Assembly: GCA_037893245.1 (NCBI GenBank)
Contig: JBAIAA010000259.1
Coordinates: 124,001-188,000 of the forward strand
From: Crossaster papposus
Taxonomy: Eukaryota > Echinodermata > Asteroidea > Velatida > Solasteridae
Direction: 5' to 3'
DNA: 64,000 bases
Position numbers and translations under genes: made by a program. The notes under the pieces were generated by a model that saw nothing but the letters and a program-made list of their open reading frames with translations, had not been told where the DNA came from and ran no database searches. Below, piece after piece: positions 25,058 through 64,000 of this stretch; the stretch's first letter is position 1, and every line of letters starts with the position of its first letter.

Positions 25058-25595
25058 ACGTAAATAGGATTTTCAGTCCCCAGGATATTTTTCTGAGGTT
25101 TTCCTCCTACATATAAAATGAACTTTGATTCACATTGTCTTCTCTTACTGATAGAACAGTGGATTCCACTGAATGGGCTGCCCACCAGAAATTATAAATA
25201 AATAACATAAATAAATGCTGGACCGTCATGATCTAGAGACATTTTTTTAAATTTAATGAGACATTTTTTGTATCTAAAAATAAATATGACATGTATTTAA
25301 GGTAAAACAAAATCAAATGTTGGGCATTTTTAATTGTTATAAAAACAGTGGTGATTTTGGTTGATTTAGTACATGTAACATGCACTTTGTTGTTGCACAT
25401 GTATGTAAATTAATCATATACATGTACCGAACATGTAGAATGTAAATCATGATTGGGATAGTACACTACAAATGTAGGCCTTTGTTTCTTTTTTGTTTGA
25501 GTGTAATTTAGGTGAGCAAATGTTTCCTATTGAAAAATGGATATTTAAAAAAAAATATCATTTTGTGTACAGAAAACTACCAAAGACAAGCCACC
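25058..25595. other. Upstream region of the Helentron ORF1
   Basis: AT-rich sequence with ACATGTA words and no ORF. It may contain the left end of the Helentron and its promoter, but I could not identify a terminus. Confidence 0.4.
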
Positions 25596-28500: not shown

Positions 28501-29618
28501 TCCATGGAAATACATTTGTTGTAATGGCTCAAGATGGCATGTATTATATTTTTGATTCACACTCCAGGGATAAACGAGGTTATCAAGTTGCTGAAGGTCA
28601 GAGTTTACTGAAACGTGTAGCTACATGGCAAGATGTGCACAGGTACTGTACTGATTTGGCCAGATCTATGAATTTATCTAACAATGAGCAGTTTGAAATT
28701 ACAGGTGCATCTGTGTGGTTAGATGATGAGGTAAGACAGGATGCTAATGGTACTACACAAGAGACTGGACATTTGTTATTAGGGAGCAGTGATCGTAGTG
28801 AAGACATAGGTAGAGTCAGTACTAGTTCTGGAGTTGAGCTTGGATCTCATAGTGGCTTGTCAAGTACACATAGTGATATGACAAATAATATGAAGGAAGA
28901 GGACAAAGGCAGTTTGCATGGAACGAGTTGCAATAATGAATCAGATGGAGGCAGTGATGTGGAAATCGACAGAGTGACACAAATGCAGGGTTTTAAGTTT
29001 GTTCCGTTGACATGTGGTAGTAAGGATGCACTGTGTAAACAACATAGAATGGGCCATGTGCTACTGGATTGCAATGAAATTTCAGATAAATGTGAAGAAA
29101 TGGGACGACCTGATTCAGTGAAAAGAATTAAAGGAGATGGCAACTGCTTTTTCAGGGCAATGTCATATGCTGTATCAGGAACTGAAGATAACCATATGCA
29201 ATTAAGAATGGCTACTGTTAATCATCTGTTGAAAAATGGAAATAAATTTAATGGTTTTCTCCGACAAGGCTATGTAAATGTGGAAGAATATGTCATGAAG
29301 AAAAGAATGTTTGACTGTGGAACGTGGGCTACTGAGGTTGAAATCATGGTAATGGCAGACATGTTATGTACAGATATTTATACATTTGAAGATGGAAGCA
29401 AGTGGTATGTTTTTGGTGCAAGTACCTTTGATAAAGAGGCTGTAACATCAGATGAAGGAGTTTACTTGTATCATAGGCAAAGGATTCACTACGATGTTGT
29501 GTTGTCAGTTTTTGAAGTAACAAGACAAACTCATAATGGACAACATAATCCAAGCAATGGAGGAGATTTAAAATATGGAAAAGATGCTACTGACAGTAAA
29601 TCTGAAAAAAATAAATAA
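25596..29618 (+). CDS. Helentron ORF1: PHD finger, tegument-like protease and OTU protease
   Basis: The chosen ATG at 25,596 has a perfect GCCACCATG context; an upstream GTG frame at 25,512 is less likely. The protein has 1,340 residues. Residues about 60-215 are repeats of the 14-residue type [14 protein letters not shown]. Basic stretches follow (about 310-500). A PHD-type finger spans about 560-612 ([27 protein letters not shown]). Residues about 845-1,020 resemble the cysteine protease of herpesvirus large tegument proteins (family C76): GKQCVANGL holds the likely Cys (about 860) and FDSHSRD (about 986) the Asp and His. Residues about 1,175-1,308 form an OTU protease with GDGNCFFRA (Asp and Cys) and a late His in RIHYDVV. 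Both proteases are deubiquitinase folds, so this protein may edit ubiquitin on Rep or host factors (inference). It is uninterrupted and overlaps ORF2 by 44 bases in another frame. Confidence 0.85.
25775..26245 (+). repeat. In-frame 42-bp repeats in ORF1
   Basis: Units of 42 bp begin GGGGCTCACCAGGCCGTTAA. They encode alternating IDEN/MNEY endings and are interrupted by two longer spacers ([12 protein letters not shown] and similar). The period is a multiple of three, so the frame is kept. The copies are very similar and probably vary in number between alleles. Confidence 0.9.
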
Positions 29619-32600: not shown

Positions 32601-32817
32601 TTTGCCATCAGAAAAACAAGACAAAGAGTTAAATGAAATCATCAGTCATGTGCAGGTACATAGTAAAAAACATTCAAAATCGTGCAAGAAGAAGGGTACC
32701 GAGTGCAGGTTTAATTTCCCAAGACCTCCATCTGAACGAACGTTCATTACAGAGCCTATGCCAACAGATGATGAGAATGAAACTACACGTAGTGATGAGA
32801 ATAAAAACTACACGTAG
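29575..32817 (+). pseudogene. Helentron ORF2, N-terminal part: zinc fingers and HUH Rep
   Basis: The ORF starts at an ATG at 29,575, inside the end of ORF1. Residues about 90-380 are near-perfect 20-residue repeats ([18 protein letters not shown] type). After about residue 480 come Cys/His clusters ([26 protein letters not shown]) like the fingers that precede Helitron Rep domains. The Helitron-like N-terminal domain follows ([30 protein letters not shown]), and the HUH metal-binding motif is [10 protein letters not shown] near nt 32,500. The Rep nicks single-stranded DNA and starts rolling-circle transposition (family knowledge). This frame ends at 32,817 because of a one-base gain in a duplicated segment near 32,785-32,815; the rest of the gene continues in another frame. 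The copy is therefore broken, unless frameshifting rescues it. Confidence 0.8.
29850..30715 (+). repeat. 60-bp tandem repeats coding Lys/Tyr-rich units
   Basis: About 14 copies of a 60-bp unit, around GAATACAGAGAGAAGCTAAT and AAAACAAAGTATTG. Two or three subtypes alternate (LITKG and KIAQG endings), suggesting amplification of a two- or three-unit block. Diverged copies continue to about 30,900. The period is a multiple of three, so the frame holds. Confidence 0.9.
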
Positions 32818-35800
32818 TGATGAGAATGAAACTAATGATGGTAAAAGCAGTGAAAGCAACAAGGCCAAGGAATTACTACAATCAATATGGACTGCAATAC
32901 AGAAACCTGAGAATGAACACATGACAACCAATGAATTATTTGCAAGTGTAAATCTTACACAAAGTGATTTTGAAAACGCTAACGATGTATTAAGTTGCAA
33001 AACAAGTTTAGTTCATAAGAGACAACCACAAGATGTGTGGGTTAATTTATACAATCCACATTTGATAAGATGTTGGAATGCAAACATGGATATTCAGTAC
33101 ATCTGTGATGCTTATGCTTGTGTTGCCTATGTGGTATCTTACATGTCAAAAGCGGAACGTGAAATGAGTATACTGTTGTCACAGGCTCAGGCTGAAGCAC
33201 AGAAAGGAAACTTGGATGCTAGACAGAGTATGAAGGAAATTGGTTGTGTGTATTTGCATAATCGCGAGGTCTCGGCACAAGAAGCAGTATATCGTGTTTG
33301 TAATCTGAGATTGAAAGAAGGATCACGGAAAGTGGAATTTATACCTGTTGGTGAAAATCCAATTAGAATGAGCAAGCCACTCAGTATTATTCAAAGAACA
33401 TGTGATGAAGATGATAGTATTTGGATGACTAGCAGAATTGATAGATACATAGCAAGACCAAAAATTGATATCTTTGAAACAATGTGCTTGGCAACTTTTT
33501 GCTCTGATTATAGAGTCATATATACTAATATAGTTAAAACAAGTCGTTCTCCAATATATAAATTAAAGAATGGTTTAGGACACATACAGAAACGTAGTCG
33601 AACTGATCCAGCAGTTATACGATTTCCTAGATTTTCAGCTGAAAAATATCCTGAGAAGTACTATCAGAGTATCCTGCAATTGTATCTTCCATATCGTGTT
33701 GATGTTCATTTGAAACCGCAGCAGTTTGAATCTTATGAAGAATTTTATAGCAATGGCATTATTAAGATCTGTGGTGTATTAAAACTTGTCAAAAATGTTG
33801 TTAGAAATAACCGATCATTGTATGAAGCTAGTGCTGAGGCTGTAGATGAAGCTGAGGAAATGTTGGAGAAGTATGGTACACAAGAAGATGCTTGGGCATT
33901 GATAGCTCCAGAAGCTGAAATGGAAAGACTTGAATGCGCAGGGGAAAAAAAAGAACAAGTGGAAGATGGTGACAGTGATTCTGATATTCCTGATTTAAAA
34001 TCTATAAAAGATGATAGTGTAAAATGTACTATTGATCCACACAGACTAAATGTATCCAAACAAGAAGCAATGAATTTGATGAGGTGTCTCAATGTTAAAC
34101 AAAAAGAAGTATTTTACAAAGTAAGGCAATGGTGTTTAGACAAAGTCAATGGTGAAAACCCTGAACCGTTTCGTGTATTTGTTACTGGTGGAGCTGGTAC
34201 AGGGAAAAGTCATTTAATAAAGTGTATCTACTATGAAGCAACAAGACTTTTTGGAAGAATGATGGAGAATCCTGATGATGTATCAGTCTTACTTACAGCC
34301 CCTACAGGTGTTGCTGCATATAATATCCATGGTTCGACAATTCACAGTGCTTTGTCAATTACTACAAATGCAAGATTGCCATATCAACCACTTGGTGAGG
34401 AGAAGATTAGTACACTGCGGCATAAATTAAGGCAACTACAGATTTTAATTGTTGATGAGATTTCAATGGTGAGTCATAAACTCTTGTGCTACATCCATGG
34501 TCGTCTGCGACAGGTAAAACAATCACAAAATCATAACCACTTTGGAAATGTCAGCGTATTAGCGGTTGGTGATTTTTATCAGTTACCTCCAGTAAAAGGA
34601 AAATCTTTGTACCAGACTGGTGTTACAACTGATTTGTGGAATGATAACTTTTGCAAAGTAGAACTGACTGACATAATGAGACAAAAGGATGATGCAAAGT
34701 TTGCTGAGGTGTTGAACAGATTACGGATTAGAAAGAAAAAGCAAAGTTTACAAAGTGATGATAAGAAACTGCTACAATCACGTGAGACTGGAGAAGATTG
34801 GATTGATGCTGTGCATATTTACCCATGCAATAAGGAGGTGAATGAGTACAACACACAGACTCTTTTTGCTAAATGTTCAGATTCCATAAAAACGTGTGTC
34901 CTTGCTAAAGATTTTCAGAAAGATGCCAAAAGTGGGAAAATGATACCCTTAAAAAAAAAAGTAAAGAAATCTTCGAACACAAATTTACCTGATTTTCTAT
35001 GGCTTGGTATTGGTGCTAGAGTCATGCTTACAAGGAATCTTGACGTTTCTGATGGACTTGTTAATGGCGTCTTCGGTACCGTAATTGACATTGTCATGTT
35101 ATCTAATGATGCTCAATCACCTAAGTCCATTAAAGTTAAATTTGATAATGAGAATATTGGTTTAAAACTAAAACAACAGTCCTCTGGTAATGATGTTGAC
35201 ACTGTCAGTATTGAAATGGTGGAAGACAGTTTTAATAAACAGTGTGTGAGACACCAGTTCCCTCTTAAGTTAGCTTGGGCATGTACAGCTCACAAGGTGC
35301 AAGGCATGAGTTTGGACAAGGCAGTGGTGTGTCTGACCCGTACATTTTCAGCAGGACAAGCATATGTTAGTTTGAGTAGAGTTGTATCACTGAATGGTCT
35401 TGTGATAGAAGGGTTTGATGAGAAATATATTTATTGTAACGAGGCAGTAGCTGAGGCAATGAGTAAAATGGCATTGTATATTGATAACAATGAAATCAAG
35501 GACGATCATTGTTATAACACAAGCATTGCTATGCATAATATTCAAGGACTTCAGGCACACGCAATTGATTTGAAAGCTAATGATGAAATGATGTCATGTG
35601 ATTTCATTTGCCTGACAGAAACATGGACTGACAAAGACTTTGATTGTGATATGGATATGAGTGATTACACATGGTATCATCAACCAAGAAGTATGTGTTA
35701 TGATAACTCCAGTCATGTGTCATGCATGTTAAAAGAACAGAGTCGTGGAGGTGTAGCTGTGTGTGGCAAAAAGGACAGAGTGTTTAGTAGGATACATTTG

Positions 35801-35992
35801 CCAATCAACAATCTTGAATATATTGCATTTCAATTAGATGCAATTTCAAATGTGTCATTAGTTGTTGTAATAGTTTATCGACCCCCATCCTATACATTAA
35901 AGGAATTTGTACAAGTTCTTGAAATGTTATTGAGTGAAATACACAAGATTCAAACTCGTGCATTGTTATGGGGGATTTTAACGAAGATATAA
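32798..35992 (+). pseudogene. Helentron ORF2, middle part: Rep tyrosine region, PIF1-like helicase, start of endonuclease
   Basis: This frame continues the Rep protein after the shift near 32,800. The Rep tyrosine region is AYVVSYMSKAER (nt about 33,125-33,160), matching the two-tyrosine motif of Helitron Reps. The helicase follows: Walker A GGAGTGKS near 34,190, Walker B ILIVDEISMVS near 34,445, VGDFYQLPPVKG near 34,565, ACTAHKVQGMSL near 35,280 and YVSLSRV near 35,365. These are the signatures of PIF1-family helicases that unwind DNA during rolling-circle transposition. From about 35,530 an apurinic-type endonuclease begins (HNIQGL, CLTETWT, RGGVAVCGK, VYRPPSY). The frame stops at 35,992 after a shift in a G run near 35,968, and the endonuclease is completed in the next frame. 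Helicase motifs look intact; the two shifts are the only damage I see. Confidence 0.85.
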
Positions 35993-50400: not shown

Positions 50401-50689
50401 GGTTACTAAAAGAAAAAAAAAAAAGAAAAAAAAAAATCAGAACAAAAACAAAGGCTTTTTCGCAAAATTTGCGAAAAAGCCAAAAAAAAAAGAAAAAAAA
50501 AAACTTTAACGATTACAATAGCTGTTTCGGTGAAAAACCGAAACAGCTAAAAAAAAAAAAAAAAAAATCTTAAAAAAAAAAAAAAAATCTAAAAAAAAAA
50601 AAAAAAAAAAAAAATAATAAATAAAATAAATCACGCTTAAATAATTAATATAACGCCCGATTTTTTTTCTCAATCGTTGGCACATATAG
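50401..50689. repeat. A-rich hairpin segment at the border of the virus-like block
   Basis: A near-perfect hairpin at 50,453-50,482 (GGCTTTTT...CGCAAAA and its complement with one unpaired base) and the AGCTGTTTCGGT hairpin at 50,520-50,548 are embedded in long A tracts. A tracts end near 50,621. The open viral frame begins immediately after, at 50,690, so the junction lies within this segment. Confidence 0.7.
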
Positions 50690-51253
50690 AACACCATAGC
50701 CGATCGATATCTGACTGTCATCGAAGAGGGTCTCGACCATTTGAGACCTGCCACGATAGCCGAAATCACGGCCGATCTGATCTTGACGCACAGGCGAGGT
50801 GTTTACGTGGCATCCGATTACAAAGGTAACCCGTGGCCCTTTTTAAATTTTGACGATGTTCAAACATTTTTTGGGCTGCCGGGCTTAAGAAAAACGGCAC
50901 TGGCGCCACTTACCGAAATCGTACCTTATGAATTTCAATATGCTTATGCCGCAGACAGTGAAAAGAGATTTTTGATTGAACGGATGTCGCAGACCAATAT
51001 CGTCGTGTCGACCGAACTCACGAAGGAAGCTAACGCTATTTTAAGCGAGGGGACCGGCGGCGGGAAGATGCGCGATAGTCTCGTCGCGGGTGCGCCCACT
51101 CTGGATGATTTAATCAAGCGAGTCAACGACGATCACAAGATGGCGAGCGCTTTAGAGATAAAGGCTAATCACGCATATAAAAAATACGACGAAATAAAAG
51201 AAGCGGGCGCCGACCAAAAAAAAAAGATTGCGATCGGCAGATGGCGATATTAA
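50690..51253 (+). CDS. Virus-like ORF, 5' end missing
   Basis: The frame is open from just after a TAG at 50,687-50,689 to a TAA at 51,251-51,253 (187 codons) and has no ATG near its start, so the N-terminal part of the gene seems to be lost at the junction with the A-rich segment. It is CpG-rich and includes LRPATIAEITADLIL, a Gly-rich loop (GTGGGKMRD) and a charged helical end (HAYKKYDEIKEAGADQKKK). I recognise no family. The last 13 bases overlap the start of the next ORF (ATG at 51,241), as is common in compact viral genomes. It is most likely the C-terminal part of a virion or replication protein, but that is a guess. Confidence 0.6.
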   Translation, partial: NTIADRYLTVIEEGLDHLRPATIAEITADLILTHRRGVYVASDYKGNPWPFLNFDDVQTFFGLPGLRKTALAPLTEIVPYEFQYAYAADSEKRFLIERMSQTNIVVSTELTKEANAILSEGTGGGKMRDSLVAGAPTLDDLIKRVNDDHKMASALEIKANHAYKKYDEIKEAGADQKKKIAIGRWRY

Positions 51254-53677
51254 ATCAATCGCTAAAATCGGTCAAAGACATACAGCAACGAATTCTAAAC
51301 GCCGATTTTCGAGTTACCCTCGCAAACGACGACGACGACCGAGAACCTCTGTTTGTGCAAAGTCTTGCCGCGACGCAACCATATACTGCGCTGTTAAGGC
51401 TGGCTCACACTATGACGAATAGGGGGGTACGGCAAGCTACGGTAAGCTGCGAATTTCAATTTTGAATTTGCCGCCACTCATCGTGTGTTGCCGTCAGTTG
51501 TCGCTGACAAATCCGCTAGCGACCGCAGACGACGGAAATCATCAGTCGCGTCCGTCGGCAAATTTTGAGCTTGTTGTAAATTTTGTGGCGGCAAAACATT
51601 CGTTGTGATTCCGTTCAGATTTCGTTAGAGACCGCAACCCTCATTTCCTTGACGTTTCCATGCCGTGCGATTCCGTCTCTAGTCGTTTTAAGGTCGTCAC
51701 AATTTCGTTGGTAGTCGTTGTCAACGACCATTGACGGCAAAACAACGGCAAGTGACGTCACATCTCGAACCCTGACGACACATTGCGGCAAGTAACGAAA
51801 TTGTAACGACCTTGGTGCGACGATGGATTGCGAATTTTGGTCGGAGGGTGACGGGTGATGACTGTTGATGGCGGGTCGTTTGCGAGTACCTGCGGCATTG
51901 CAACGGTGGCCTGCGATGGGTTACGATTTTGCAACGATGGTCCACGATTTTAAACTTTTAGTGCGATTTTTCACGTTGTGTGACGCCAGAACGTTGTGAA
52001 GAGTGGGAACGCCAAACTCGACTATTTATACGACCCGCACACACACACAAGTGTGTAAAGGCCTTCGATCGTGGACGGGGTATTGTCCGACCGTCTTCCC
52101 TCTTTTGTTTATACTCTAACGTTTTTTGATGATCGCCATAGGATTTGTACACGGGAAAAGATCGTGGACGTTGTGTCAATCGTGGACCCATTGTTTGACT
52201 CCCAATTCTTTTGTCCGACGACCACGATTGCCGGTCAATACAAACGCACACACACACAGGCTTTGATATCGACCGCAACCCACCGTCAGCCACCGTTCCT
52301 TGCCGCCAGCCAATCCGCTGCTAGCCGTCTGACCTCGTTCCTTGTTGTCGGGCTCCGTCGAGACATCGTCACTCGCCGCCCAGACAACGTCCGAGTTTGG
52401 TCGCCCGCCTCCGTTCCCTGCCGCAGCCATTCGTCCCTTGCCGTCGTGTTGTCGCTGGAGGTCGTTCCCAACCGTCAGCGAATCTTGGTTTTCCCCTTTT
52501 GCCGTCGCTTTGCCGCCAACATTTTTTATTTTCACGTTCGTCGCCCTTCGTTGGGTCTTTGCCGCTACTATGTGAGCCAGCCTTTAGACGAGAGCGGAAC
52601 CGAGACAAAAACACATCGAAAAAAACTCCACCAGACGACGGACGAATTTCGATTAATTAAAACGGTTAATAAACTCACCCAACAGTTACGATCACAGGCC
52701 TTAGAAAACAAAAAGAGGCCACGCAGTTTTCCATCAACCACTCGAATCTCGAGTTGCACGCAAAGGTGTTACCCACGCGTTTAAAAGCAAGCGAAGACGT
52801 ATCGTCTAAACTCAACCAATCAATAATGCGCAAAGACAGATTAAACACAAATTTGCGGACCCACATCAACAAAATCGAAGACATGTTAAAGAGCGTCACG
52901 GCAACGCTGCGACTATCCGAAGAAGATCGAACAAAAATTATGCAAACGACATCGTCTGGCGCAAGTGTCGGCGATCGCGATGCGGGCTCATCCTATACCA
53001 ACTCCATCGACGATTTTAACGCATTGACCGATATTGATCAAAGAGCGAGAGAGACCCTCGACGTGTTTTACGAACTTCTCGGATCTTATGGGACAGCCGA
53101 TCAGAGCAAGGCAAAAAACAAAGGGCTTAAAGAGCTTGACGTATCTCGACTCGCATACGACAGGGTGTTGTATGACTATTGTGTAAGGCCAATACCAATA
53201 TTTGGCGAGACACACGATCAAAAACACTTAGAAGAGGTAAATCGGTGGATAGGCTCATCGGAGGTCAAAGACCGTTTTATAAACGACTGTATATCCGCTC
53301 GAGCGGGTGGAGTGTTTGCACCTCGACAACAGCAAACGGCTATCGCGAGAGACGCCGCAATATTTGTCACAAAAGATACCTATTGTATCAATGTCAATCC
53401 GCTGACGGACGACCGAAAAGACGCGGCCCAAGAAGCACTAAGCAAAGCGGGATCAGCTCTGGGTGTTCAAAACGCGTTTCAAAAACGCTATCTCTCGGTG
53501 CAATTTAAAAGCAAAGGCGACGTCGGTGCCGTTATCAATCGCCCGCTGAGAGACAGATGGGACCAGTTCACGCAAAACTTGTTCCGCCTCGGCACCAGTT
53601 CGTTTACCGACACAGGTCAAACATTATCTCCTATGCTCACCGAAACCAGTCTTAAAAAATGTATAGTACCTTTTTAA
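51241..53677 (+). pseudogene. Virus-like coiled-coil gene, split by a transposon and a frameshift
   Basis: The ATG at 51,241 overlaps the end of the previous ORF. The first 52 codons reach 51,396, where a 1,187-bp transposon is inserted. The frame resumes directly after the duplicated TTA at 52,584-52,586 and continues until an A-rich run near 52,700-52,720, where the sensible frame changes by one; it then stays open to 53,677. The host-free length would be about 415 residues. The later part (about 300 residues) has heptad-like helices near its start (LRTHINKIEDMLKSVTATL) and a globular end (RDRWDQFTQNLFRLGTSSF). No family is recognised. Two separate lesions show the gene is dead here. Confidence 0.7.
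51397..52583. mobile_element. PIF/Harbinger-type MITE, 1,187 bp, inside a viral ORF
   Basis: The inverted ends are AGGCTGGCTCACA (13 bp, with further similarity). The target duplication is TTA at 51,394-51,396 and 52,584-52,586; a TWA triplet target is typical of PIF/Harbinger elements. The interior is CpG-rich with repeated CCGTC/CGTTG words. An ORF of 237 codons that runs out of its right end (52,071-52,784) mixes element and viral sequence and is not a gene. It encodes no transposase. Confidence 0.85.
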
Positions 53678-53704
53678 AAATTATACACGGGATCGCAACG
53701 ATTT

Positions 53705-53884
53705 ATGTTAAAAAATATGCGGTATACTATTTTTAGCGACGAACAACTCGGTTTTTCTCAATACGTTAAATACGACAGAGTGAGCGATTTACGACCAGAT
53801 GCGTTTTTGTCTTTTGACGGACGCACAGATAAGTGGACCGCGCTTGTACAACATTTTTGCGCCGAACTCATATCGCCTGTGTAG
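53705..53884 (+). CDS. Small virus-like ORF, 59 aa
   Basis: ATG at 53,705-53,707 and TAG at 53,882-53,884. It lies 27 bp after the previous stop and 4 bp before the start of the dUTPase gene, in the same direction. It is CpG-rich with an ordinary globular composition (MRYTIFSDEQLGFSQYV, LSFDGRTDKWTALV). I recognise no family. Tight packing and composition make it more credible than its length suggests. Confidence 0.55.
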   Translation: MLKNMRYTIFSDEQLGFSQYVKYDRVSDLRPDAFLSFDGRTDKWTALVQHFCAELISPV

Positions 53885-53888
53885 AAAT

Positions 53889-56525
53889 ATGGCCGGCGTA
53901 ATACCCCTGTCACACCGGAGCTACGCTGCCGTTGCGCTCCCACGGCGACTAAAAAAGTTGAAAAATGCAGTAGAAGCGCAGTATGATCGCCAATAGCGTA
54001 GTGGGAACGTAGTGGAGTCTACCTAGGTCGTGGAAGGGTCTCCATGGTCGCCTAACATCGCAGAGGGTCGGCGACCTGGTCCAAAACGCAGTGAGAGCGT
54101 AGTGGGATCTCAAAGAACGTACTACGGACGTAGTGAAGTCTACCTGAGCGTGTCATGATCGTAGCAAGAGCGAGTTGGTATCGCCGTCTGCCCAATCTGC
54201 GACTGATACCCCTGTCAGACCGGTGTGCAATCCCACAGCGACCTTACTGCGATGCAGTTTTCATCAAAAACGCAGTGGGGTTGCCAACAAATCCTGAAAT
54301 CTATGAGGTAGGTAGCTCACAATACGCTCTTGACTCGCTCACTGCGCTCTCACTACACTCTCACTGCGACCTATGCGTTCCCAGTTTGATTATCGCCGCG
54401 CTCTCGCTGCGCTCCCACTACGCTCTACGCGATCTCGCTGCGACCAAGGCGACCTCGCTACGACCTCGCTACGACCTTACTACGCTGTCACTACGTCCCC
54501 ACTACGTTCTATGCGTTTGTACCGCGTTCGCGCGGCGACTATAAACACAGCGAGCTCGATGTTGCTGGATATTTGCTATCTGTTGTACAATTATTATGTT
54601 CTGCCTCTCTACATCCATGGTGAAGAGGAGATGCACATTAGTATGTTGTGTGGAGGATATAGGCTGCATTTTTTAACATTTGTGGCCATTACGCATGTCA
54701 AAGTCAGAACGTACTATACACGCAGTATAATCTCCGTATAATCGCACTGTGAACGTACAGGAAGCTCCGTAACATCGCCATGGACGCATTAGGGGCGCCA
54801 TAGTCGTACTGGCAGCCCCGTGTGGACGCAGTATGAGCGTGAAGAAGCCCTATACGACGTAGTAGAAGCGCAGTAGGAGCGCGGTAAGAGCGTAGTGAGA
54901 GCGTGACAAGCGTACAGTGGTTGTTCTTCAGACGTACTTCAGTCGCAGATTGGGCAGACGGCGATACCAACTCGCTCTTGCTACGATCATGACACGCTCA
55001 GGTAGACTTCACGGCGTCCCAAGTACGTTCTTTGAGATCCCACTACGTTCTCACTGCGCACCCAGGGCGTTTGGACCAGGTCGCCGACCCTCTGCGATTG
55101 TTTTGAGCAGGCTCAAAACAATCGCCGAGGTTTCGCGACCATGGAGAACCTCCCCGACCTAGGTAGACTTCACTGCGTTCGGACTACGCTCTTGGCGATC
55201 CTACTGCGCTTCTACTGCGTTTTAGTGTTTTTAGTTGCCGTGGGAGCGCAACGGCAGCGTAGCTCCGGTGTGACAGGGGTATTACCACGGATGTAGAGAG
55301 GCAGAACATAATAATTGTACAATAGATAGCAAATATCCAGCAACATCGAGCTCGCTGTATTTATAGTCGCCGCGCGAACGCGGTACAAACGCGCAAAACG
55401 TAGTGGGGACGTAGTGAGTGCGTAGTAAGGTCGTAGCGAGGTCGTAGTGAGGTCGTCTTGGTCGCAGCGAGATCGCGTGGAGCGTAGTGGAAGCGCAGTG
55501 GGAGCGCGGCGAGGAACGCATAGGTCACAGTGAGAGTGTAGTGAGAGCGCAGTGAGCGAGTCAAGAGCGTACTGTGAGCTACCTACATCATAGATTTCAT
55601 GGTTTTTTTGCCAGTTTTCGGCGACCCCACTGCGTTTTTGATGAAAACTTCATCGCAGTAAGGTTGCCGTGAGATCGCACTCCGGTGTGACAGGGGTATA
55701 AACAACTCGGTAGACGGAAACAAATGGTGCCTCCAGCACGTAAAGGACGCCATAGATCGTTGCGAGGTCCATTTTACGGCTCTGACGAGTTCGGCGCTCA
55801 TGCCTACGCGCGCCACAGAGGGATCTGCGGGTCTAGATATTTTTACGGACATAACATCTCCCGTCGACCAGGCGAAACCTATTACGCCAGGACGGGCATA
55901 ATATTAGAACATCACCCATACGAAAACGCCATGGTCAAAGCTAAGTCGAGCATGATCTGCAGGGGGCTGTTAGCCGTCCCGTATATCGTCAAGGTGGGCC
56001 TTGGCGATAACCAACGTCGACAGCGGAGAGCTAAGGATATTGCCAAAGAGTAAAATCGCCCAGATCGTGTTTTACGACAACGAAAAATCCGATATAGACA
56101 AATCGGAAGACGCGGCACTATATGTCGCCGAAGATACGACGGTAAAGGCAAACTGCATCGCGACTGTCTGCACCGCAAACAAGCTCTATCCGAGCACGGT
56201 CAATACGTGCGGGTTTGTTAAGAGCTTATATGACCCTTGCGCATACACCTATGTGATTTCTGGCGTCATCGATAACGACTTTGAAAACAAAATCGCCGTC
56301 GTCGTCGTCAACATGGCAAACCAGGATGTGCTTTACAAAAAAGGCGTCAAAATCGCAGAGTTAAGTCATCATGAAATTGCCGGCATGGGCGCCTGGGCAT
56401 CTGTACACAAACCCTCAAAGTCTGTCTTTGCCGCACCTCTGCTCTCTCCCGGCGCCAAACCACGCGTTGGCGGTTTTGGTTCGACCGGGTTTTGGGCTAC
56501 CGAACATCTCAATGTGATGATTTAA
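53889..56525 (+). pseudogene. dUTPase-family gene, split by a transposon and out of frame for about 130 bp
   Basis: dUTPase hydrolyses dUTP to dUMP and keeps uracil out of viral DNA. The ATG is at 53,889, five bases after the small ORF. A 1,797-bp transposon sits near codon 4 (53,902-55,698); from 55,702 the same frame reads to EGSAGLDIF at 55,818-55,844, a clear dUTPase motif I. Between about 55,866 and 55,998 the meaningful frame is the neighbouring one (TGIILEHHP; AKSSMICRGL, like motif II), then the first frame returns with ILPKSKIAQIVF (motif IV type), SGVIDNDFENKI (motif III type), KKGVKIAEL (motif IV type) and GGFGSTGF (motif V) before the stop at 56,525. The host-free length is about 278 residues, roughly twice a trimeric dUTPase, and motif IV-type strands occur twice, so it looks like a two-barrel enzyme such as those of herpesviruses. 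The two opposite shifts may be sequencing errors or decay. Confidence 0.8.
53902..55698. mobile_element. Composite PIF/Harbinger-type MITE, 1,797 bp
   Basis: Outer ends are TACCCCTGTCACACCGG and its near-complement, with TAA duplications at 53,899-53,901 and 55,699-55,701. Inside there are two interleaved inverted-repeat pairs: 53,902-54,204 pairs with about 54,935-55,283, and 54,205-54,625 pairs with about 55,284-55,698. Terminus-like sequences therefore also occur internally near 54,207 and 55,283. This points to a dimer or to one related copy inserted into or recombined with another. Many GCGTAGTG/CACTACGC words recur. No transposase. Confidence 0.8.
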
Positions 56526-56636
56526 AACAAATCTGCAGTTTTAACTTTCATAACGAGTTTTTTATGTAATTTGCCAGATTTTATATTTTTGTTTAATCTT
56601 AAAGCCCCCAAAGTGTTATGTTAAAACCGTAAACTT

Positions 56637-56642
56637 AATAAA
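56637..56642 (+). terminator. Possible polyadenylation signal of the dUTPase gene
   Basis: AATAAA lies 112 bp after the dUTPase stop, in the 179-bp gap between this gene and the convergent membrane-protein ORF. Confidence 0.45.
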
Positions 56643-56704
56643 CGGTATGGTGTTTTTTTCGACAAAAGACACCAACCGATTATTTTTACTTTTACATATT
56701 TCAA

Positions 56705-57148
56705 TCAGGCATCTCCAAACAAAAAACTGTTTTTTGTTTGAGTTTTAGTAGATGTGTATATTTCAAGGTCTGAATCGATTTCGTCAGACTCTATTAAAGT
56801 TGTTAGTTCCTTTTTTGTAACTGCTGGGCGTTTCCACACTTTGCTTTTTGATATTTTTTTTTGGTTTAAAGACATGTTATAGTTGTTGACTCTAGAAAGT
56901 AACGGCGTTTTTTGGGGGATAGTCGTGTTGTAACAATTAACGAGGAGAAACATCGCCGCTGTCAAGGTACTAATCAGCGTGATCAGCGTAAAAATAAAAA
57001 ACGTGGTATCTAACAACTCAGACATCCACGCGGTTAAAAATACAAATTCGCGGCGTAATTGCAGTATGTCTTCTTGCATAACAGGCATGCCCGGTATGGG
57101 TCTGTAGTCTGCTGCGTTGCACATTATCTCTTCTAGATTTTTGGTCAT
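56705..57148 (-). CDS. Virus-like single-pass membrane protein, 147 aa
   Basis: The minus-strand ATG occupies 57,146-57,148. A hydrophobic segment at about residues 46-71 (TTFFIFTLITLISTLTAAMF) is long enough to span a membrane. The N-terminal 45 residues are short and mixed and the C-terminal 75 are polar with Lys/Ser/Thr and an acidic patch (IESDEIDSDLEIY). I see no signal peptide. It converges on the dUTPase gene and its start codon overlaps that of the divergent ORF at 57,147. A minor virion or infected-cell membrane protein is likely, but no family is recognised. Confidence 0.6.
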   Translation of the reverse strand: MTKNLEEIMCNAADYRPIPGMPVMQEDILQLRREFVFLTAWMSELLDTTFFIFTLITLISTLTAAMFLLVNCYNTTIPQKTPLLSRVNNYNMSLNQKKISKSKVWKRPAVTKKELTTLIESDEIDSDLEIYTSTKTQTKNSFLFGDA

Positions 57149-57464
57149 GGCGTTTTATCTCGGCGATACTCTCGTAGAACGACCAGCTTTTTGTATGGGA
57201 GCACAAGACGATCTTTTTCAGACGAGCACCGCCAAGAGAGAGTGGTTAATCAAAACGTTTAACGATTCGCCGTTAGACAACCCGTTAAACCCATATATAA
57301 CTAAAGCACACGAAAATTTGACCAGACAAAACGTCGATAGAGTGATACTGGCGTGTGCGTTATGGGGCACTGGAGTCAAACCGTCGCTCGACGGTTTTAT
57401 ATCTGGTGACAGACGGGCGACTGCAATATACAACGGAGCGCTGCCTTTTGCGCTAGTTCGATAA
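57147..57464 (+). CDS. Virus-like ORF, 105 aa
   Basis: The first ATG is at 57,147-57,149 (an in-frame TTG at 57,117 is an unlikely start). It encodes MAFYLGDTLVERPAFCMG and ends in NGALPFALVR at 57,464. It abuts the next open frame, which has no ATG near its start, so both may be one gene split by a shift near 57,447-57,465. Composition is CpG-rich and no family is recognised. Its promoter would have to lie within the divergent membrane-protein ORF. Confidence 0.6.
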   Translation: MAFYLGDTLVERPAFCMGAQDDLFQTSTAKREWLIKTFNDSPLDNPLNPYITKAHENLTRQNVDRVILACALWGTGVKPSLDGFISGDRRATAIYNGALPFALVR

Positions 57465-57465
57465 T

Positions 57466-58211
57466 TTGTGTGTCTGTGCGTTTTTACCGCTCGTCACACA
57501 GCCTCGTGTGCTGGACGCAATTGAACGGCGCCAAAAAAGTCAGACAATTTTTGAAGAGATTGATGCAGACGCAGTGTCGTCGTTTGACAGATTGATGATC
57601 GACGTCGATCACCGTTATCAATTTGATTTTACCAGGCCTCAGATTGTAAGACTTGCTACAATATTTGCAGCGTGGTTTGAAGTAGAGCAACGATTGGTCG
57701 ACGCGCACGTCGCCCAAAATAAACTGGCGCCCGTCGACGCACTGTGCGATTTTGTATTTGTGGTTTTGCCGACATGCGTATCCGAAATCAATCGGTGCAG
57801 TTTAAATCCTCTAGTGGCTAATTATGCTGGGTTTTTGAGATGTGCGCGAGCGCTATATGCCGTGGCTATACGATCGGTGCCTGGTAATCGCTTGATACAA
57901 GATTTTGATACGCGCGTCGTGGCACCTCTGCGTGTGCATTACACAAAATTAAAATCGAGTTTGGGGGAGTGGAGAGAGCCCACATATTGTTGCGAATCAC
58001 CTCCAACATTAAGATTGTCCCTCTTAGAAAATGCGATTTTTGGAAATGATCCCGAGGCGCGCTTCACTAACCCGTTTTCACTGCGCGTACTGGTCGACGT
58101 CGCGCAGCTCTTTAAATATATCGACGCAGACAGGGGTTGCTTTTTTTGGCTCAACTGCATTTTGAGGCCGCTGAGACTGCGCTGTATTGACGGTCGCCCA
58201 AATAGACCAGC
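57466..58211 (+). pseudogene. Virus-like ORF, first part, cut by a 5.1-kb element
   Basis: An open frame without a near ATG starts right after the stop of the previous ORF and reads through about 248 codons to the insertion point at 58,211; the apparent stop (58,225-58,227) belongs to the inserted element. Features include FEEIDADAVSSFDRLMIDV, several Cys residues and an aromatic Cys-rich segment near its end (CFFWLNCIL). The frame continues beyond the element from 63,316. No family is recognised. It is probably a structural or replication protein of the same virus; the initial part may be the ORF at 57,147. Confidence 0.6.
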
Positions 58212-58319
58212 TAGTCAGGTGGCTTAGCGACAATTTTCAGGATTAACGTTACCGGCCGGACAAAAGTACCAAATTTGGCATAGAGTTTATTTTCGACCTA
58301 TCTATTGATTTTATCCGTG

Positions 58320-58700
58320 GAACCCACTTGATCGGTTCCGATTTTCCAAGATGGCGGCCAAAATCCAAGATGGCCGCCAGAAACAAAGGAAATGTCATAT
58401 ATCTGGCTGTAAAAATCGGAGATGAACAAATGAGGTGTCAATTCAGGTGTTTCCGGGGTCACTGAAACAGATGCTGGTTATGGCATGTTGCTCGGGTCAC
58501 CCATTTCCAAGATGGCTGCCAAATTTAAAAATGGCCGCCAAAAAAAAGAAAATTACGTATTTCTGACTGTGAAAATCGGAAATGAACAAATGAGGTGTGA
58601 ATTCAGGGGTTTCTTGGGTCACTGAAACAGATGCTGGTCATGGCACTTTGCTCGGGTCACCCATTTCCAAGATGGTGGCCAATATAACAAAAAATACACA
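58320..58700. repeat. Subterminal repeats with YY1-like words, left arm
   Basis: About three diverged repeats contain CCAAGATGGCGGCC or AAGATGGCTGCC. AAGATGGCGGC is the consensus YY1 site. The inverted counterpart lies at about 62,700-63,195. Confidence 0.65.
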
Positions 58701-59040
58701 TTGTCACTGTTAAGCCTGTACATACTGGTAGTATTCAGGAATTGTATCTACAATTGTTCAATACAATGTATTGTAACGGAACTGGGTAGGGCCTATATGC
58801 CGACTCGTATGCACGTCTAGTTAATCTAAAAATATATTGCTCATGTAGGATCACGCTTTCATACTGCGTGATACATGGCGCAGAGGCCAATCATCAACGC
58901 ACGGCTGCATGATCAGCGTTAAGCAACCAATTACCGGTTCACGTATCTTCTGCCTGGTAACTGCATAGATAATTAGCGCGTGGTGACCAATCGCCGTAGC
59001 GCATTTTCGCGACTTCTGTGGTCTTTTGCGCCGTTTCTAG
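58701..59040. other. Interior of foldback element, no gene
   Basis: Non-coding sequence between the left arm and the Gypsy relic. Short inverted words occur but no family feature. Confidence 0.4.
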
Positions 59041-61280
59041 TCAGTTCGGTGGATGGCGTCAATACTAGAAGAAGTACCTGAAGTACCCAAAGAATTACTG
59101 TGGGCACAATTGCGACAGTTGAGGTTGACTCGGTAGTGGTGCCGGGTGAGAGTCGTTGGTGTGAGGTTTAAGGAGGCTTGCCAAGTTACCTGCATGATAT
59201 AATACGACCGTAGTAAGATCAACCTCGCTGAGGAATATCATGAGGAGGTGAAGGCATGCCTGATAGAATTTCAGGATGTATTTTCTTCTAAAGCACCACA
59301 TCAGTACGGGCGATGCGAGGCCTAACAAGGAGAGGCTTCGGCGCAATCCCTTGTGTAATCAGGAGGAGATATAGAGGCAGGTTGGAGATTTGAAGAAGCG
59401 AGGGTTTATCGAGCCATCCTATATAGTCCCTGGGCTGCAAATGTTGTGTTAGTCCGGAAGAAGGACGGAACTAAGCGATTTTGTGTCGACTATCGGGGTC
59501 TGAATAAGGTAACAATCAAAGATGCTTACCCTGTCCCTCGTATCGACGAGACACTAGATGCGTTGGTGGGTGCACAGTGGTTTTCCACTCTCGATTTAGC
59601 GTCCGGTTATTAGCAGGTCGACCTCGATGAGGATGCCAACCAGAAGTTAACCTTTGTAGTGCGGAACGGTTTATACAGCTGGCGCTGCATGCCCTTTGGT
59701 CTGTGCAACGCCTCTGCGACATTTGAAAAATTGATGAAGAGGGTGATGACAGGTCTTCAGTGGGACATCCTGCTGATATACCTGGACGATGTCATTGTGT
59801 TTGGCAAGACTGTAAAAGAGGAGATTGAACGACTGCAAGTCGTCTTCTCCAGGTTGAGGCGAGCTGGTTTGAAGTTGAAGCCTGGTAAGTGCTTCTTGTT
59901 TCAGATATCAGTGGGCTATTTGGGACATATTGTGTCGCCTGAAGGTGTGGCTACCGACCTTGAGAAGGTTCGGGCCGTGGCCAATTGGCCAACACCTAAG
60001 TGTGTTTAGGAAGTTTGAAGCTTTTTAGGCCTCGCTTCATATTACCGGATGTTTTTTAGGGGATTTGCAGAGGTTGCTTCACCGTTGCATGCGCTGACTG
60101 AAAAGTCGCGTGAGTTCAAGTGGACAGATGCCTTCCAACAGGCATTTGTTGAGTTAAAGTTGAGTTAAAGTGGGGATGGGATTGGGGCAGTTTTGTCTCA
60201 GATCCATGATGGGGAAGAGAAGGTTATCGGCTTTGCGAGCTGTAAACTCAGCAAGGCAGAGAGGAACTACTGTGTTACCCGGAGAGAACTTCTGGCGGGA
60301 GTTGTCTACCTCAGGAAGTTTAGACAGTTCCTGTATGGTCAGAAGGTGCTACTCTGAACCGACCATGCTGCTCTTATAGGTGAATGCTTAATTTTAAGGA
60401 CCCCAAGGATCAGCTTGCCAGGTGGCTGGAAGTGATCAGCGAGTACGATTTGACAATTCAACACAGACCTGGGCGGAAGCATGGAAATGCTGATGGGTTG
60501 TCCCGGAAGGCCTGCGAACAGTGTGGTCGTGCTGACGCTGATGAAGCGTCAGAGACCGTTGAGGCTTCGAATAAGGCCAAGGTGACAACGATCAGTGAGG
60601 TTGACGATGGTCGCCATGTGGTTGACTCTGACATGCCGATCCTAGAGGCGAGGGTGAGGTGCATCTTTGCTCAACCACACTTGCCTAAGGATGCAGTCAG
60701 AGAGGGTCAACTTGATGACAGAAGTATTGGTTGGGTGATTAGGTCCTCTTGGAATCAGTGGAAGGTGCAGGACGGTGTCCTAGAAATTAGGAGTCCGGCG
60801 ATGGGAAGTCCGTGAGGTTGCGACTGGCACTTCCTGATAAATTTAGAGAGGTCGTACTTCAGGAGCTGCATGGTGGCCGGACGAGTGGCCAGACGAGTGG
60901 GCATTTAGGGGTCAATAAGACTTTGGTCAAGGTCAAGTTGCAATACTATTGGCTCGGAATGACCGCGGATGTGAGGTCATTTATCAGACTAGATGTTGCG
61001 AGCTGTGTGGGAGGAGGACATCTCCTGCGAAGTAAAGAGTTTCCCCGCTCAAACAGTATTTGGTGGTCGAGCTCATGGAGAAAGTGGCGGTGGATTTGCT
61101 GGGGCCACTCCCTCGGTGTGACACTTTAGGAAACCTGCAAGGAGGTATCCTGAGAGGAAGCATAGGCTTCCCGTTAGATATAGGGATTAGGTTAGCCATC
61201 ACCAAGGAACACTTATTTGGACGGCAAGCTGGTGCAGGAAGAAGCGCCAGTTTTGACTGCCAGTTTTGTCGGAGTTAATC
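59041..61280 (+). pseudogene. Decayed Ty3/Gypsy pol
   Basis: Pieces of pol lie in order in changing frames with stop codons. FQDVFSSKAP near 59,265 precedes the reverse transcriptase, which runs [18 protein letters not shown] near 59,460, STLDLASGY followed by a TAG near 59,611, and CMPFGLCNASATF and LIYLDDVIVFG to about 59,800. RNase H remains around 60,180-60,370, then a connecting region (IQHRPGRKHGNADGLSRK) near 60,450. The integrase zinc region (HLGVNKTL) lies near 60,900 and DLLGPLPR near 61,095. The lineage differs from the intact element at 13.9-19.9 kb. Neither LTR was found. Several stops and shifts make it clearly dead. Confidence 0.8.
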
Positions 61281-61321
61281 CGTCACATCCTACACCACAT
61301 TAACATATCCATACCACTTTA

Positions 61322-61342
61322 TAAGATTCAGCTTTGCTGAAT
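61322..61342. repeat. Short hairpin before the Tc1 element
   Basis: AGATTCAGC, TTT, GCTGAATCT. Just downstream, 61,382-61,435 carries a TATATAGCGCTTTT...AAAGCGCTTTATATA inverted pair, a motif common in animal intergenic DNA. Confidence 0.5.
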
Positions 61343-61450
61343 CTAAAAATAATTTACACCTCTATATAATAATGCTAGTTCTTATATAGCGCTTTTAGAC
61401 TCCCACAATGTGGGTGTATCAAAGCGCTTTATATACAAATTTCTGTCATA

Positions 61451-62686
61451 AACACCTCAACAAAAGTAACTCCCCCTCACTACAGTTCGTCATAACATCG
61501 TCAGGTAAAACATTTTACCAATCAAACTTAGTTAAAAATAATCCTATGACTGTTTCCTAAATGTTGTTGGAAAATAAAAGATGTCCATAACTTCATGGCT
61601 GAATGAGCTCAAATGAATGAACAAAACTGCCCTTCTCAAAAGTCACAAAAGTTGATCAAATCTTCAGGTTAGTATCGCGTGTATCCACAACGCCTGTTAA
61701 TGACCGCCTGGTCTTCGACCACCCAACCGCCAGAGAGTTTCGACGCAGACGATTACATGGCGCTTGCACAATGCTGGACTTTGTGCTCGACGTCTAGTGA
61801 AGAAGGCCACCCTGGAACTACGACACTGACAAGCGCGTATGTTATGGGCCACAGCTCATGTTCGATGGACCAGACAGCAGTGGAGCAATGGGTTGTTCAC
61901 GGTGAGATGAGAAGTTGTCTGCGTCACATTGATGGCCGGAGACGTGTGTGGCGTCGAGTTAGAGAGCAACATGCCGAGTGCTGTGTTCAGCCAGTTACAG
62001 CCTATGGTGGCGGTAGTGTAATGGTGTGGGGTGGTATTAGCCTTACCAGGAAAACACCACTTGTGCAGATTGCTGGCAACCTGACAGCTCAACGATATGT
62101 TGACGAAGTGCTGCGTCCACATGTTGCACCACTTGCTGCAGCCCACGGTGGAGCATTTGTTTACATGGATGGCAATGCCCCACCACACAGAGGGAGAGTA
62201 GCTACTGCATACTTGGCTGGTGAAGTCATCAATCGAATGGTGTGTCCGGCATGCTCGCCTGACCTCAATCCCTTAGAGCACCTCTGGGACCAGCTGAAGC
62301 GATCTGTATATCCTCACATCAACGCCAACAGCAACCTGGCTCACCTATCCCATCTTCTGCAGGTTCAGTGGAATGCACACAGCAGCGTGTCGCCAGCTTG
62401 ATCAACACCATGAGAAGACGGTGCCAGGCGGTCATTACTAACAAGCGTGGTGGATACACGCGATACTGACCTGAAGATTTGATCAACTTTTGTGACTTTT
62501 GAGAAGGGCAGTTTTGTTCATTCATTTGAGCTCATTCAGCCATGAAGTTATGGACATCTTGTATTTTCCAACAACATTTAGGAAACAGTCATGGGATTAT
62601 TTTTAACTAAGTTTGATTGGTAAATGTTTTACCTGACGATGTTATGACGAACTGTTGAGAGGGGGAGTTACTTTTGTTGAGGTGTT
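61451..62686 (+). mobile_element. Tc1/mariner element, decayed, with long inverted repeats
   Basis: Ends AACACCTCAACAAAAGTAAC and complement are flanked by TA (61,449-61,450 and 62,687-62,688). The inverted repeats are about 235 bp long each. The single transposase reading frame is damaged. Confidence 0.85.
61679..62401 (+). pseudogene. Tc1-type transposase remnant
   Basis: The middle and late parts are recognisable: GRRRVWRR, GGGSVMVWGGIS, NLTAQRYVDEVLRPHV and SPDLNPLEHLWDQLKR, which carries the catalytic Glu. The first catalytic block is degenerate, the second reads MDGNAPPH in place of the usual Asp-Asn-Ala form, and the N-terminal DNA-binding part is out of frame. The natural C-terminal end (INTMRRRCQAV, nt about 62,402-62,435) lies in another frame after a shift near 62,385. 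The protein cannot be active. Confidence 0.8.
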
Positions 62687-62699
62687 TATATCTTAAATG

Positions 62700-63195
62700 T
62701 AGTATTGGCGGCCATTTTGAAATTTGTCATTTGAGCAAAATGTCATGGCCAGCATCTATTTCCGTGACCCCAGAAACCCCTGAATTGACACCTCATTTGT
62801 TCATTTTCGATTTTCACATTCAGATATACGTAATTTTCTTTTTTTTGGCAGCCATTTTGAAATTTGGCCGCCATATTAGAAATGGGTGACCCGAGCAACA
62901 TGCCATGACCAGCATCGGTTTAAGTGACCCCGGAAACACCTGAATTGACACCTCATTTGTTCATTTCCAATTTTCACACTCAGAAATACGTAATTTCCTT
63001 TTTTTTGGCGGCCATTTTGAAATCTGGCCGCCATCTTGGAAATGGGTTACCCGAGCTACATGCCATGACCAGCATCTGTTTCACTGACCCCGGCAACACC
63101 TGAATTGACACCTCATTTGTTCATCTCCAATTTTTATGACATTTCCTTTGTTTCTGGCGGCCATCTTGGATTTTGGCCGCCATCTTGGAAAATCG
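62700..63195. repeat. Subterminal repeats with YY1-like words, right arm
   Basis: Inverted counterpart of the left arm repeats, with GGCGGCCATCTTGG or GGCAGCCATTTTG words and CACCTCATTTGTTCAT phrases in three to four copies. Confidence 0.65.
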
Positions 63196-63315
63196 GAACC
63201 GATCAAGTGGGTTCCACGGATAAAATCAATAGATAGGTCGAAAAGAAACTCCATGCCAAATTTGGTACTTTTGTCCGGCCGGTAACGTTAAATTTGCTAA
63301 GCCACCTGACTAAGC

Positions 63316-63733
63316 CTCGTTAAAGACAAAATGCGCCGATAACTTTTTCTTTACTCTGTCGGCTGCCACGTTAAAAAAACTCTGTCAACAAAATCGATAT
63401 ATAAACGTGGACGCCCGAGATGTCAGCGACAACGCCGACGAGGGACTGCACATCGACATGCCCGCGGATCTTTTTGTGTTTTATGATGCCGTTCGCCGGT
63501 TTGGGTGTTGCTGCGACGACGTTTATTCTGCGTTTATAAACAGCGTTGTCGACAGCGGTAGAAGGCTCAGCGGCCGTCTCTATGTGCCGACGAACGCCGA
63601 TAAGTCTAGTGGTAAAAAGACTGGCAAAATTAAGGTGGCTCATCACGTCGAGCAAGTGGTCGCCGCTGTATGTAACTCCGTCGTACGTGTGAGCAAAACC
63701 GTCGTGTTTGTGAGTAGAGCGTCGTACGTGTGA
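63316..63733 (+). pseudogene. Virus-like ORF, second part, after the 5.1-kb element
   Basis: The frame is open from the right edge of the element through CADNFFFTLSAATLKKL and MPADLFVFYDAVRRF to about 63,680, where a 41-bp tandem repeat begins and the frame soon stops (63,733). Its phase equals that of the ORF ending at 58,211 once the element and one AGC are ignored, so both parts belong to one gene. It is CpG-rich, with a Cys cluster (FGCCCDDVY) and a basic tail (SSGKKTGKIK). No family is recognised. The end may be altered by the repeat expansion. Confidence 0.6.
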
Positions 63734-64000
63734 GCAAAACCGTCGTGTTTGTGAGTAGAGCGTCGTGCGTGTGGAGAGCCCCGTCGTACGTGTGAGCAAA
63801 ACCGTCGTGTGTGTGAGTAGAGCGTCGTGCGTGTGGAGAGCTGCGTCGTACGTGTGAGCAAAACCGTCGTGTTTGTGAGTAGAGCGTCGTATGTGTGAGC
63901 AAAACCGTCGTGTTTGTGAGTAGAGCGTCGTACGTGTGAGCAAAACCGTCGTGTTTGTGAGTAGAGCGTCGTGCGTGTGGAGAGCCCCGTCGTACGTGTG
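63679..64000. repeat. 41-bp tandem repeat, runs off the window
   Basis: Units of 41 bp (CGTCGTACGTGTGAGCAAAA, then CCGTCGTGTTTGTGAGTAGAG) alternate with a shorter 20-21 bp variant (CGTCGTGCGTGTGGAGAG). The two halves of the unit resemble each other, so it grew from a motif of about 20 bp. As 41 is not a multiple of three, no frame stays open. Minus-strand ORFs across it are repeat translation. Confidence 0.85.

What the first reader, a model, noticed from the sequence alone, without database searches (positions are those of the whole stretch)
50690..64000. Endogenous large-DNA-virus fragment dated by three transposon insertions inside its ORFs
Seen: a TTA-flanked MITE, a TAA-flanked MITE and an AGC-flanked 5.1-kb foldback element each interrupt a CpG-rich ORF, and in all three cases the frames on both sides agree when the element and one duplicated triplet are ignored. 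Known: target duplications are made at insertion. Inferred: the viral genes were already in host DNA when the elements arrived, so this is not a contaminating free virus. The viral lineage is unknown apart from its dUTPase.
Basis: partly seen in the sequence, partly recalled or inferred. Interest (0 to 1): 0.88.

Follow-up and report, generated by a model that had tools for sequence, protein, structure and literature searches.

The report
Broken herpesvirus-like genes with transposon insertions
A stretch of animal chromosome carries the broken remains of a herpes-like virus into which the host's own jumping genes later hopped, and the same genome also holds far better preserved copies of a distant cousin of that virus.

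Summary
Three elements (51397-52583, TSD TTA; 53902-55698, TSD TAA; 58212-63312, TSD AGC) sit in CpG-rich coding DNA. Each belongs to a host-wide repeat family whose other copies mostly end where these do. The codon phase of the TSD agrees on both sides in 3 of 3, though this is weak evidence at the middle element. The block lies in a 1.59-Mb contig.

The lineage is no longer unknown. The gene split by element 1 matches, on both sides, one uninterrupted 789-aa gene elsewhere in the same genome. That gene lies in an AT-rich element with a herpesvirus terminase (PF02499 8e-11; solved terminase subunit 3, 4e-14) and a family B polymerase, held on C692 and C866 and partly on C3. On C692 and C866 inverted repeats about 111 kb apart bracket it.

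So this is most likely a decayed fragment of an endogenous herpesvirus-like genome: a new member of a known kind (amphioxus, Capitella). The relatives are more interesting than the fragment.

The parts
50640..51393 (+). Left piece of viral gene 1 (ORF 50690-51250, then another frame up to E1)
   Evidence: aligns to residues 165-267 of the 789-aa C692 ORF, score 106 against a best of 76 in 200 shuffles; the last stretch 51232-51393 does not align
51394..52586 (.). E1, MITE-like element 51397-52583 with TTA duplications 51394-51396 and 52584-52586
   Evidence: 20 other full-length copies among 40 scored of 2312 candidates
52587..53674 (+). Right piece of viral gene 1 (ORF 52673-53674)
   Evidence: BLASTP 6e-13 to the 789-aa ORF; residues 430-724 aligned, score 215 against a best shuffle of 96 of 200
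53705..53884 (+). Short ORF after gene 1, no detected homologue
53899..55701 (.). E2, MITE-like element 53902-55698 with TAA duplications 53899-53901 and 55699-55701
   Evidence: 30 other full-length copies among 40 scored of 428 candidates
55702..56522 (+). dUTPase gene in pieces of different frame; E2 lies at its start
   Evidence: PF00692 1.1e-9 on ORF 55974-56522; frames; no other copy in the genome at E<=0.1
56708..57154 (-). ORF of 149 aa with a hydrophobic stretch (by eye), no significant family match
57147..58208 (+). Viral ORF pieces (57108-57461 and 57457-58224) interrupted by E3
   Evidence: single copy in the genome for 57457-58224; codon bias; no homologue
58209..63315 (.). E3, foldback element 58212-63312 with AGC duplications 58209-58211 and 63313-63315
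   Evidence: left arm at 39 other scored places, 37 starting at base 1
61439..62698 (+). DDE_3 transposon nested in E3
   Evidence: PF13358 3.9e-9; TIRs of 267 columns, 96% alike
63316..63677 (+). ORF piece on the right of E3, same codon phase as the left piece
   Evidence: no homologue
63678..64000 (.). Tandem array (41/62/103-bp units), continuing to window-equivalent about 64,241 (its last degenerate unit to about 64,259)

Best explanation
The block is a truncated, decayed piece of a herpesvirus-like double-stranded DNA virus genome integrated in an animal chromosome. Three host DNA transposons (E1, E2, E3) jumped into it afterwards, each duplicating 3 bp. Shown: the insertions, that they are host-family elements, the contig context, the frame changes, and homology of the E1-split gene to an uninterrupted gene. 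Inferred: that the virus was herpesvirus-like (the homologous gene sits in an element with a herpesvirus-type terminase) and that the transposons came after integration. It most likely does nothing now; it is a genomic fossil.
For: Host-wide families inserted with exact bounds and 3-bp duplications; 1.59-Mb contig; gene 1 homologous on both sides of E1 to one 789-aa ORF; that ORF lies on C692 with a terminase (PF02499 8e-11, PF02500 1.4e-7; solved tripartite terminase subunit 3 at 4e-14) and a family B polymerase; a further polymerase on C657 with the same GC and CpG signature as the block; dUTPase.
Against: Only one gene of the block links it to the herpesvirus-like element, at 19-21% identity. 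The block itself holds no terminase, polymerase or capsid gene that was recognised. The dUTPase matches general dUTPases, best solved relatives Chlorella virus-type by my recollection, not herpesvirus ones. Relative codon usage of the block correlates better with the C692 polymerase (0.78) than with the C657 one (0.69), against the CpG-based link to C657. No reads were seen.
Confidence: 0.85

Rival explanations
1. The block comes from another kind of large dsDNA virus (for instance an NCLDV or a mirusvirus-like one) that shares gene 1 with the herpesvirus-like element through gene exchange.
For: Only gene 1 is shared; other ORFs have no homologue; dUTPase is not diagnostic.
Against: Gene 1 is collinear over much of its length with the gene in the terminase-bearing element; a CpG-rich polymerase related to that element's polymerase (41%) is in the same genome.
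Confidence: 0.12
2. The block is a free virus or other contaminant misassembled into the contig.
For: No read data could be examined.
Against: Three host-family transposons inside it; 1.59-Mb contig; broken frames.
Confidence: 0.02
3. The ORFs are not viral but remnants of host or transposon genes.
For: Most block ORFs have no recognised family.
Against: Gene 1 has its homologue among dense ORFs with a herpesvirus-type terminase; CpG and coding signal differ from surroundings.
Confidence: 0.03

Closest known systems
Integrated malacoherpesvirus-like genomes of amphioxus (BelcheriHV-1, PMC12373286; B. floridae, PMC2994540) and of Capitella teleta (PMC5552708)
   Same: Herpesvirus genes with terminase and polymerase assembled inside invertebrate or lancelet genomes (passages seen)
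   Different: The window block is a short fragment broken by host transposons and without a terminase; kinship of either lineage here to Malacoherpesviridae could not be tested
Teratorn (PMC10175614)
   Same: Multi-copy herpesvirus DNA in an animal genome (passages seen)
   Different: Teratorn is fused to a piggyBac transposon; no such transposase was seen among the 47 ORFs scanned here, but not all of the element was seen
Tarsier endogenous herpesvirus
   Same: A decayed herpesvirus fossil, as described in a passage of PMC10175614; its own paper PMC4063692 was seen only in a listing
   Different: By that passage a betaherpesvirus tied to telomeric integration; nothing of that kind was seen for the window block
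PIF/Harbinger-like MITEs (E1, E2)
   Same: TTA and TAA 3-bp duplications and short TIRs; the family rule is recalled
   Different: No transposase was sought

Membership tests
Endogenous viral element | Viral-type genes contiguous with host DNA and altered by host processes | tested here: met
   1.59-Mb contig; three host-family insertions; not tested with reads
Herpesvirales (window block) | Herpesvirus-type terminase | tested here: inconclusive
   None among the block's ORFs, but the block is a fragment; present in the C692 relative
Herpesvirales (window block) | Genes homologous to genes of a terminase-bearing herpesvirus-like element | tested here: met
   Gene 1, both sides of E1; one gene only
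Herpesvirales (C692/C866 element) | Herpesvirus-type terminase | tested here: met
   PF02499 8e-11 and PF02500 1.4e-7 above cut-offs; solved terminase subunit 3, 4e-14
Herpesvirales (C692/C866 element) | Family B DNA polymerase | tested here: met
   PF00136 1.7e-21; its best solved relatives are polymerase delta chains, no herpesvirus polymerase listed
Herpesvirales (C692/C866 element) | HK97-type major capsid protein, portal, protease | tested here: inconclusive
   No Pfam match in the 47 ORFs scanned; such proteins diverge beyond profile reach
Herpesvirales | Virion with T=16 capsid, tegument and envelope | not testable with these tools
   Needs virions
Malacoherpesviridae | Phylogenetic grouping with OsHV-1 and HaHV-1 | not testable with these tools
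   No malacoherpesvirus sequences were found in the collection
Teratorn-like element | Fused piggyBac transposase and transposon ends | tested here: inconclusive
   None in 47 ORFs scanned; about 100 of about 160 kb of the C692 element seen
PIF/Harbinger-type MITE (E1, E2) | 3-bp TWA duplication and TIRs | tested here: met
   rule recalled
PIF/Harbinger-type MITE (E1, E2) | Mobilised by a PIF/Harbinger transposase | not tested
   No search made

The most novel reading that the evidence does not exclude
This genome has been colonised more than once by herpesvirus-like viruses: a CpG-rich lineage, now fossil (window block, perhaps C657), and an AT-rich lineage present as at least two near-complete copies of about 160 kb with herpesvirus-style inverted repeats. 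On C692 the smaller repeat-bounded segment lies left of the 111-kb segment, on C866 right of it, while the large segment has the same orientation on both. That is how two genome isomers (inversion of the long segment) would look, so the copies would stem from separate integrations of replicating virus, or from an element that still flips.
Probability: 0.35. Interest if true: 0.86.

Novelty: new member of a known kind. Interest (0 to 1): 0.66.

Why it matters
Reports of endogenous herpesviruses are few, and those in invertebrates or lancelets fewer (papers seen). One genome with a fossil lineage whose decay is ordered by transposon insertions, and a second well-preserved lineage with inverted repeats, would allow the order, number and mechanism of herpesvirus integrations to be tested in a single host and would add deep branches to the herpesvirus tree.

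Tried and rejected
Homologue searches with window ORFs gave nothing: the search for homologous proteins with three ORFs and viral contigs with four window ORFs; three ORFs of the C692 element also found no relative there. A match of ORF 57469-58206 to the 1315-aa C692 ORF was rejected: 3 of 500 shuffles reach it and 95 targets had been tried. Two structure predictions without alignment (mean pLDDT 36.6 and 38.8) were too poor to search. PHROGs gave only a weak dCTP-deaminase match, 0.0043, to the dUTPase ORF among matches below 0.1 that make sense; NCBIfam, run on seven proteins, matched only the C692 polymerase and the window dUTPase, below their cut-offs. Rfam at gathering thresholds found nothing in the window. 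A paper search by assembly size did not name the host. Whether C692 and C866 are alleles or separate loci stays open: outer host flanks were not compared and the small-segment probe search did not complete. My first codon-bias run used two training pieces in the wrong phase and was replaced.
Full report
WHAT WAS CHECKED. The window is C259:124001-188000 of a 1.02-Gb, 1841-contig genome; the contig is 1,590,193 bp. From about 50 kb the CpG observed/expected ratio is 1.44-1.70 in the 1-kb bins that hold viral ORFs or E1, 1.20-1.26 over E2 and 0.56-1.01 over E3; the bins before 50 kb range from 0.33 to 1.42, with one at 1.85. The tandem array at the right ends near window-equivalent 64,241-64,259. 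About 300 bp further on begins what I read by eye as the first exon of a host gene (L002:1566, followed by GT; no program confirmed it). The left edge abuts A-rich DNA resembling that at 45.6 and 46.4 kb of the window and in L008.

THE THREE INSERTIONS. E1 (51397-52583), E2 (53902-55698) and E3 (58212-63312) have perfect 13-bp and 19-bp TIRs and arms of 471 columns 90% alike, with duplications TTA, TAA and AGC; the position of the duplication within the codon is the same on both sides in 3 of 3. All three are host families. E1 has 20 other copies matching all 1187 bp at 93-98% (40 of 2312 candidates scored). E2 has 30 others matching all 1797 bp at 88-98% (40 of 428 scored). The E3 left arm is at 39 other scored places at 95-99%, 37 of them starting at its first base (40 of 271 scored). 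E3 contains retroelement pol-like DNA (by eye) and a DDE_3 transposon (PF13358 3.9e-9) with TIRs of 267 columns, 96% alike, so later insertions are nested in it.

RESULTS AGAINST A SIMPLE PICTURE. Frame agreement at E2 rests on a few codons to the left. The codon-bias score favours the expected frame at E1-left (0.32), E2-right (0.27), E3-left (0.14) and E3-right (0.21), but not at E1-right (0.00, against 0.13 for a frame with one stop) or E2-left (0.02, against 0.22 for a frame with one stop). By my reading the viral genes also change frame near 51.2, 52.7, 55.88, 55.99 and 57.45 kb; a stop at 53,675 may be a natural end. The block looks like a fossil even without the transposons.

WHAT THE VIRUS WAS. 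Public viral and protein collections gave no homologue of the ORFs tried. The host genome did. ORF 52673-53674 has three relatives, on C692, C866 and C3 (E 8.5e-7, 8.5e-7, 1.5e-6). The C692 relative is a 789-aa open frame (BLASTP 6e-13). The piece left of E1 aligns to residues 165-267 of it (score 106; best of 200 shuffles 76) and the piece right of E1 to residues 430-724 (score 215; best shuffle 96). They are thus parts of one gene that is uninterrupted elsewhere. The short stretches directly beside E1, and the small ORF after the gene, do not align beyond the shuffles.

THE RELATIVE. On C692 the seven 10-kb pieces from 375 to 445 kb have 78-97% of their length in open frames of 150 aa or more; the next three have 58, 49 and 27%; seven host pieces of C259 have 4-38%. 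L032:6082-8148 matches the herpesvirus packaging families PF02499 (8e-11) and PF02500 (1.4e-7), both above cut-off; its best solved relatives are three sequences named tripartite terminase subunit 3 (4e-14), which I know as the HSV-1 protein. L027:2960-7327 is a family B polymerase (PF00136 1.7e-21) whose solved relatives are polymerases delta and alpha and other B-type ones, with no herpesvirus polymerase listed. In five Pfam calls I scanned 47 ORFs, including one from C657, one from C3 and a Tc1-like transposase at the edge; 7 of 47 had a match above a curated cut-off: two LRR proteins, a DUF5906 protein, the C692 polymerase, the C657 polymerase, the terminase and that transposase. A helicase-like match on the 1109-aa ORF is below cut-off.

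COPIES. Terminase: C692 and C866. Polymerase: C692, C866 and, at 41% in its core, C657. Helicase-like ORF: C692, C866 and part on C3. For matches of 400 bp or more, the compared C866 pieces are 99.2-100% and the C3 pieces 98.1-99.7% identical to C692, apart from one 403-bp repeat match at 91.8%. The C3 copy has stretches of 3.8 kb and 0.8 kb, and an end stretch, not found in the C692 pieces. The C657 polymerase has GC 0.45-0.47 and CpG o/e 1.55-1.59, like the window block, and is split by about 7.8 kb. Its GC3 (0.58) is nearer the block (0.51) than that of the C692 polymerase (0.29), but relative codon usage of the block correlates better with C692 (0.78) than with C657 (0.69), so a common lineage of block and C657 is only a possibility. 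The window dUTPase ORF and ORF 57457-58224 have no other copy in the genome.

INVERTED REPEATS. A 2-kb probe from the right edge of the C692 element (467400-469400, +) recurs at C692:354346-356346 (-), 100% over 2001 bp, and in part at 309539-311152 (-), 100%. On C866 it is at 675979-677661 (-) and 789139-790821 (+), 89%, and in part at 838669-840144 (+), 99%; a partial copy is on C395 (40 of 471 candidates scored; most other rows are a dispersed repeat of about 650 bp inside the probe). So a segment of about 111 kb is bracketed by inverted repeats on both contigs, with a further segment of about 43-48 kb on the left in C692 and on the right in C866, while the large segment has the same orientation on both (terminase, polymerase and helicase-like ORF all +). 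This resembles long-segment inversion in herpesviruses (recalled). It is not proven: the small segments were not compared, and an 800-bp sample of the C692 small segment shows only GC 0.29 and a 227-aa open frame. Alleles or misassembly are not excluded.

VERDICT. The window block is most likely a truncated, decayed fragment of an endogenous herpesvirus-like genome with three later host transposon insertions. The kind is known (PMC12373286, PMC5552708, PMC2994540: passages seen). My literature searches showed amphioxus, Capitella, medaka and other fish, tarsier and sturgeon cases in listings or passages; I make no claim that this case is absent from print.

Noticed in passing
G000 C692:309539-469400 and C866:675670-840144: Two elements of about 160 kb with herpesvirus-type terminase and inverted repeats about 111 kb apart; the order of large and small segment differs between the two contigs.
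   Followed up: partly
G000 C657:450292-461831 (L034): CpG-rich family B polymerase, 41% identical in its core to the C692 one, split by about 7.8 kb.
   Followed up: partly
window 55702-56522: The dUTPase may be double-length: within ORF 55974-56522 a DCD-type tail (residues 5-35, below cut-off) precedes a PF00692 match (49-130), and an AGLDIF motif lies upstream in another frame (motif role recalled).
   Followed up: partly
window 25512-35989: Long ORFs with PHD, Herpes_teg_N, OTU and PIF1 helicase matches: by recollection a Helitron/Helentron-like element.
   Followed up: no
L032:1685-2017, L018:8904-9236, L021:7973-8290, L016:6692-7019, L019:7291-7513: A repeat of about 220-330 bp, 87-96% alike, dispersed within the C692 viral element.
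   Followed up: no
C692:467400-469400 and 354346-356346: A repeat of about 650 bp found on many contigs at 97-99% lies inside the inverted repeat in both C692 copies: a host repeat may have entered the viral repeat before it was copied.
   Followed up: no
window 63678-64241 (equivalent): CpG-rich tandem array (41/62/103-bp units) at the right edge, just before a likely host exon; viral terminal repeat or host satellite is undecided.
   Followed up: no
L028:1899-2306 and L021:8671-9618: Near the right part of the C692 element: an ORF that looks death-domain-like by eye, and one with a weak Cyclin_N match (0.002, below cut-off).
   Followed up: no
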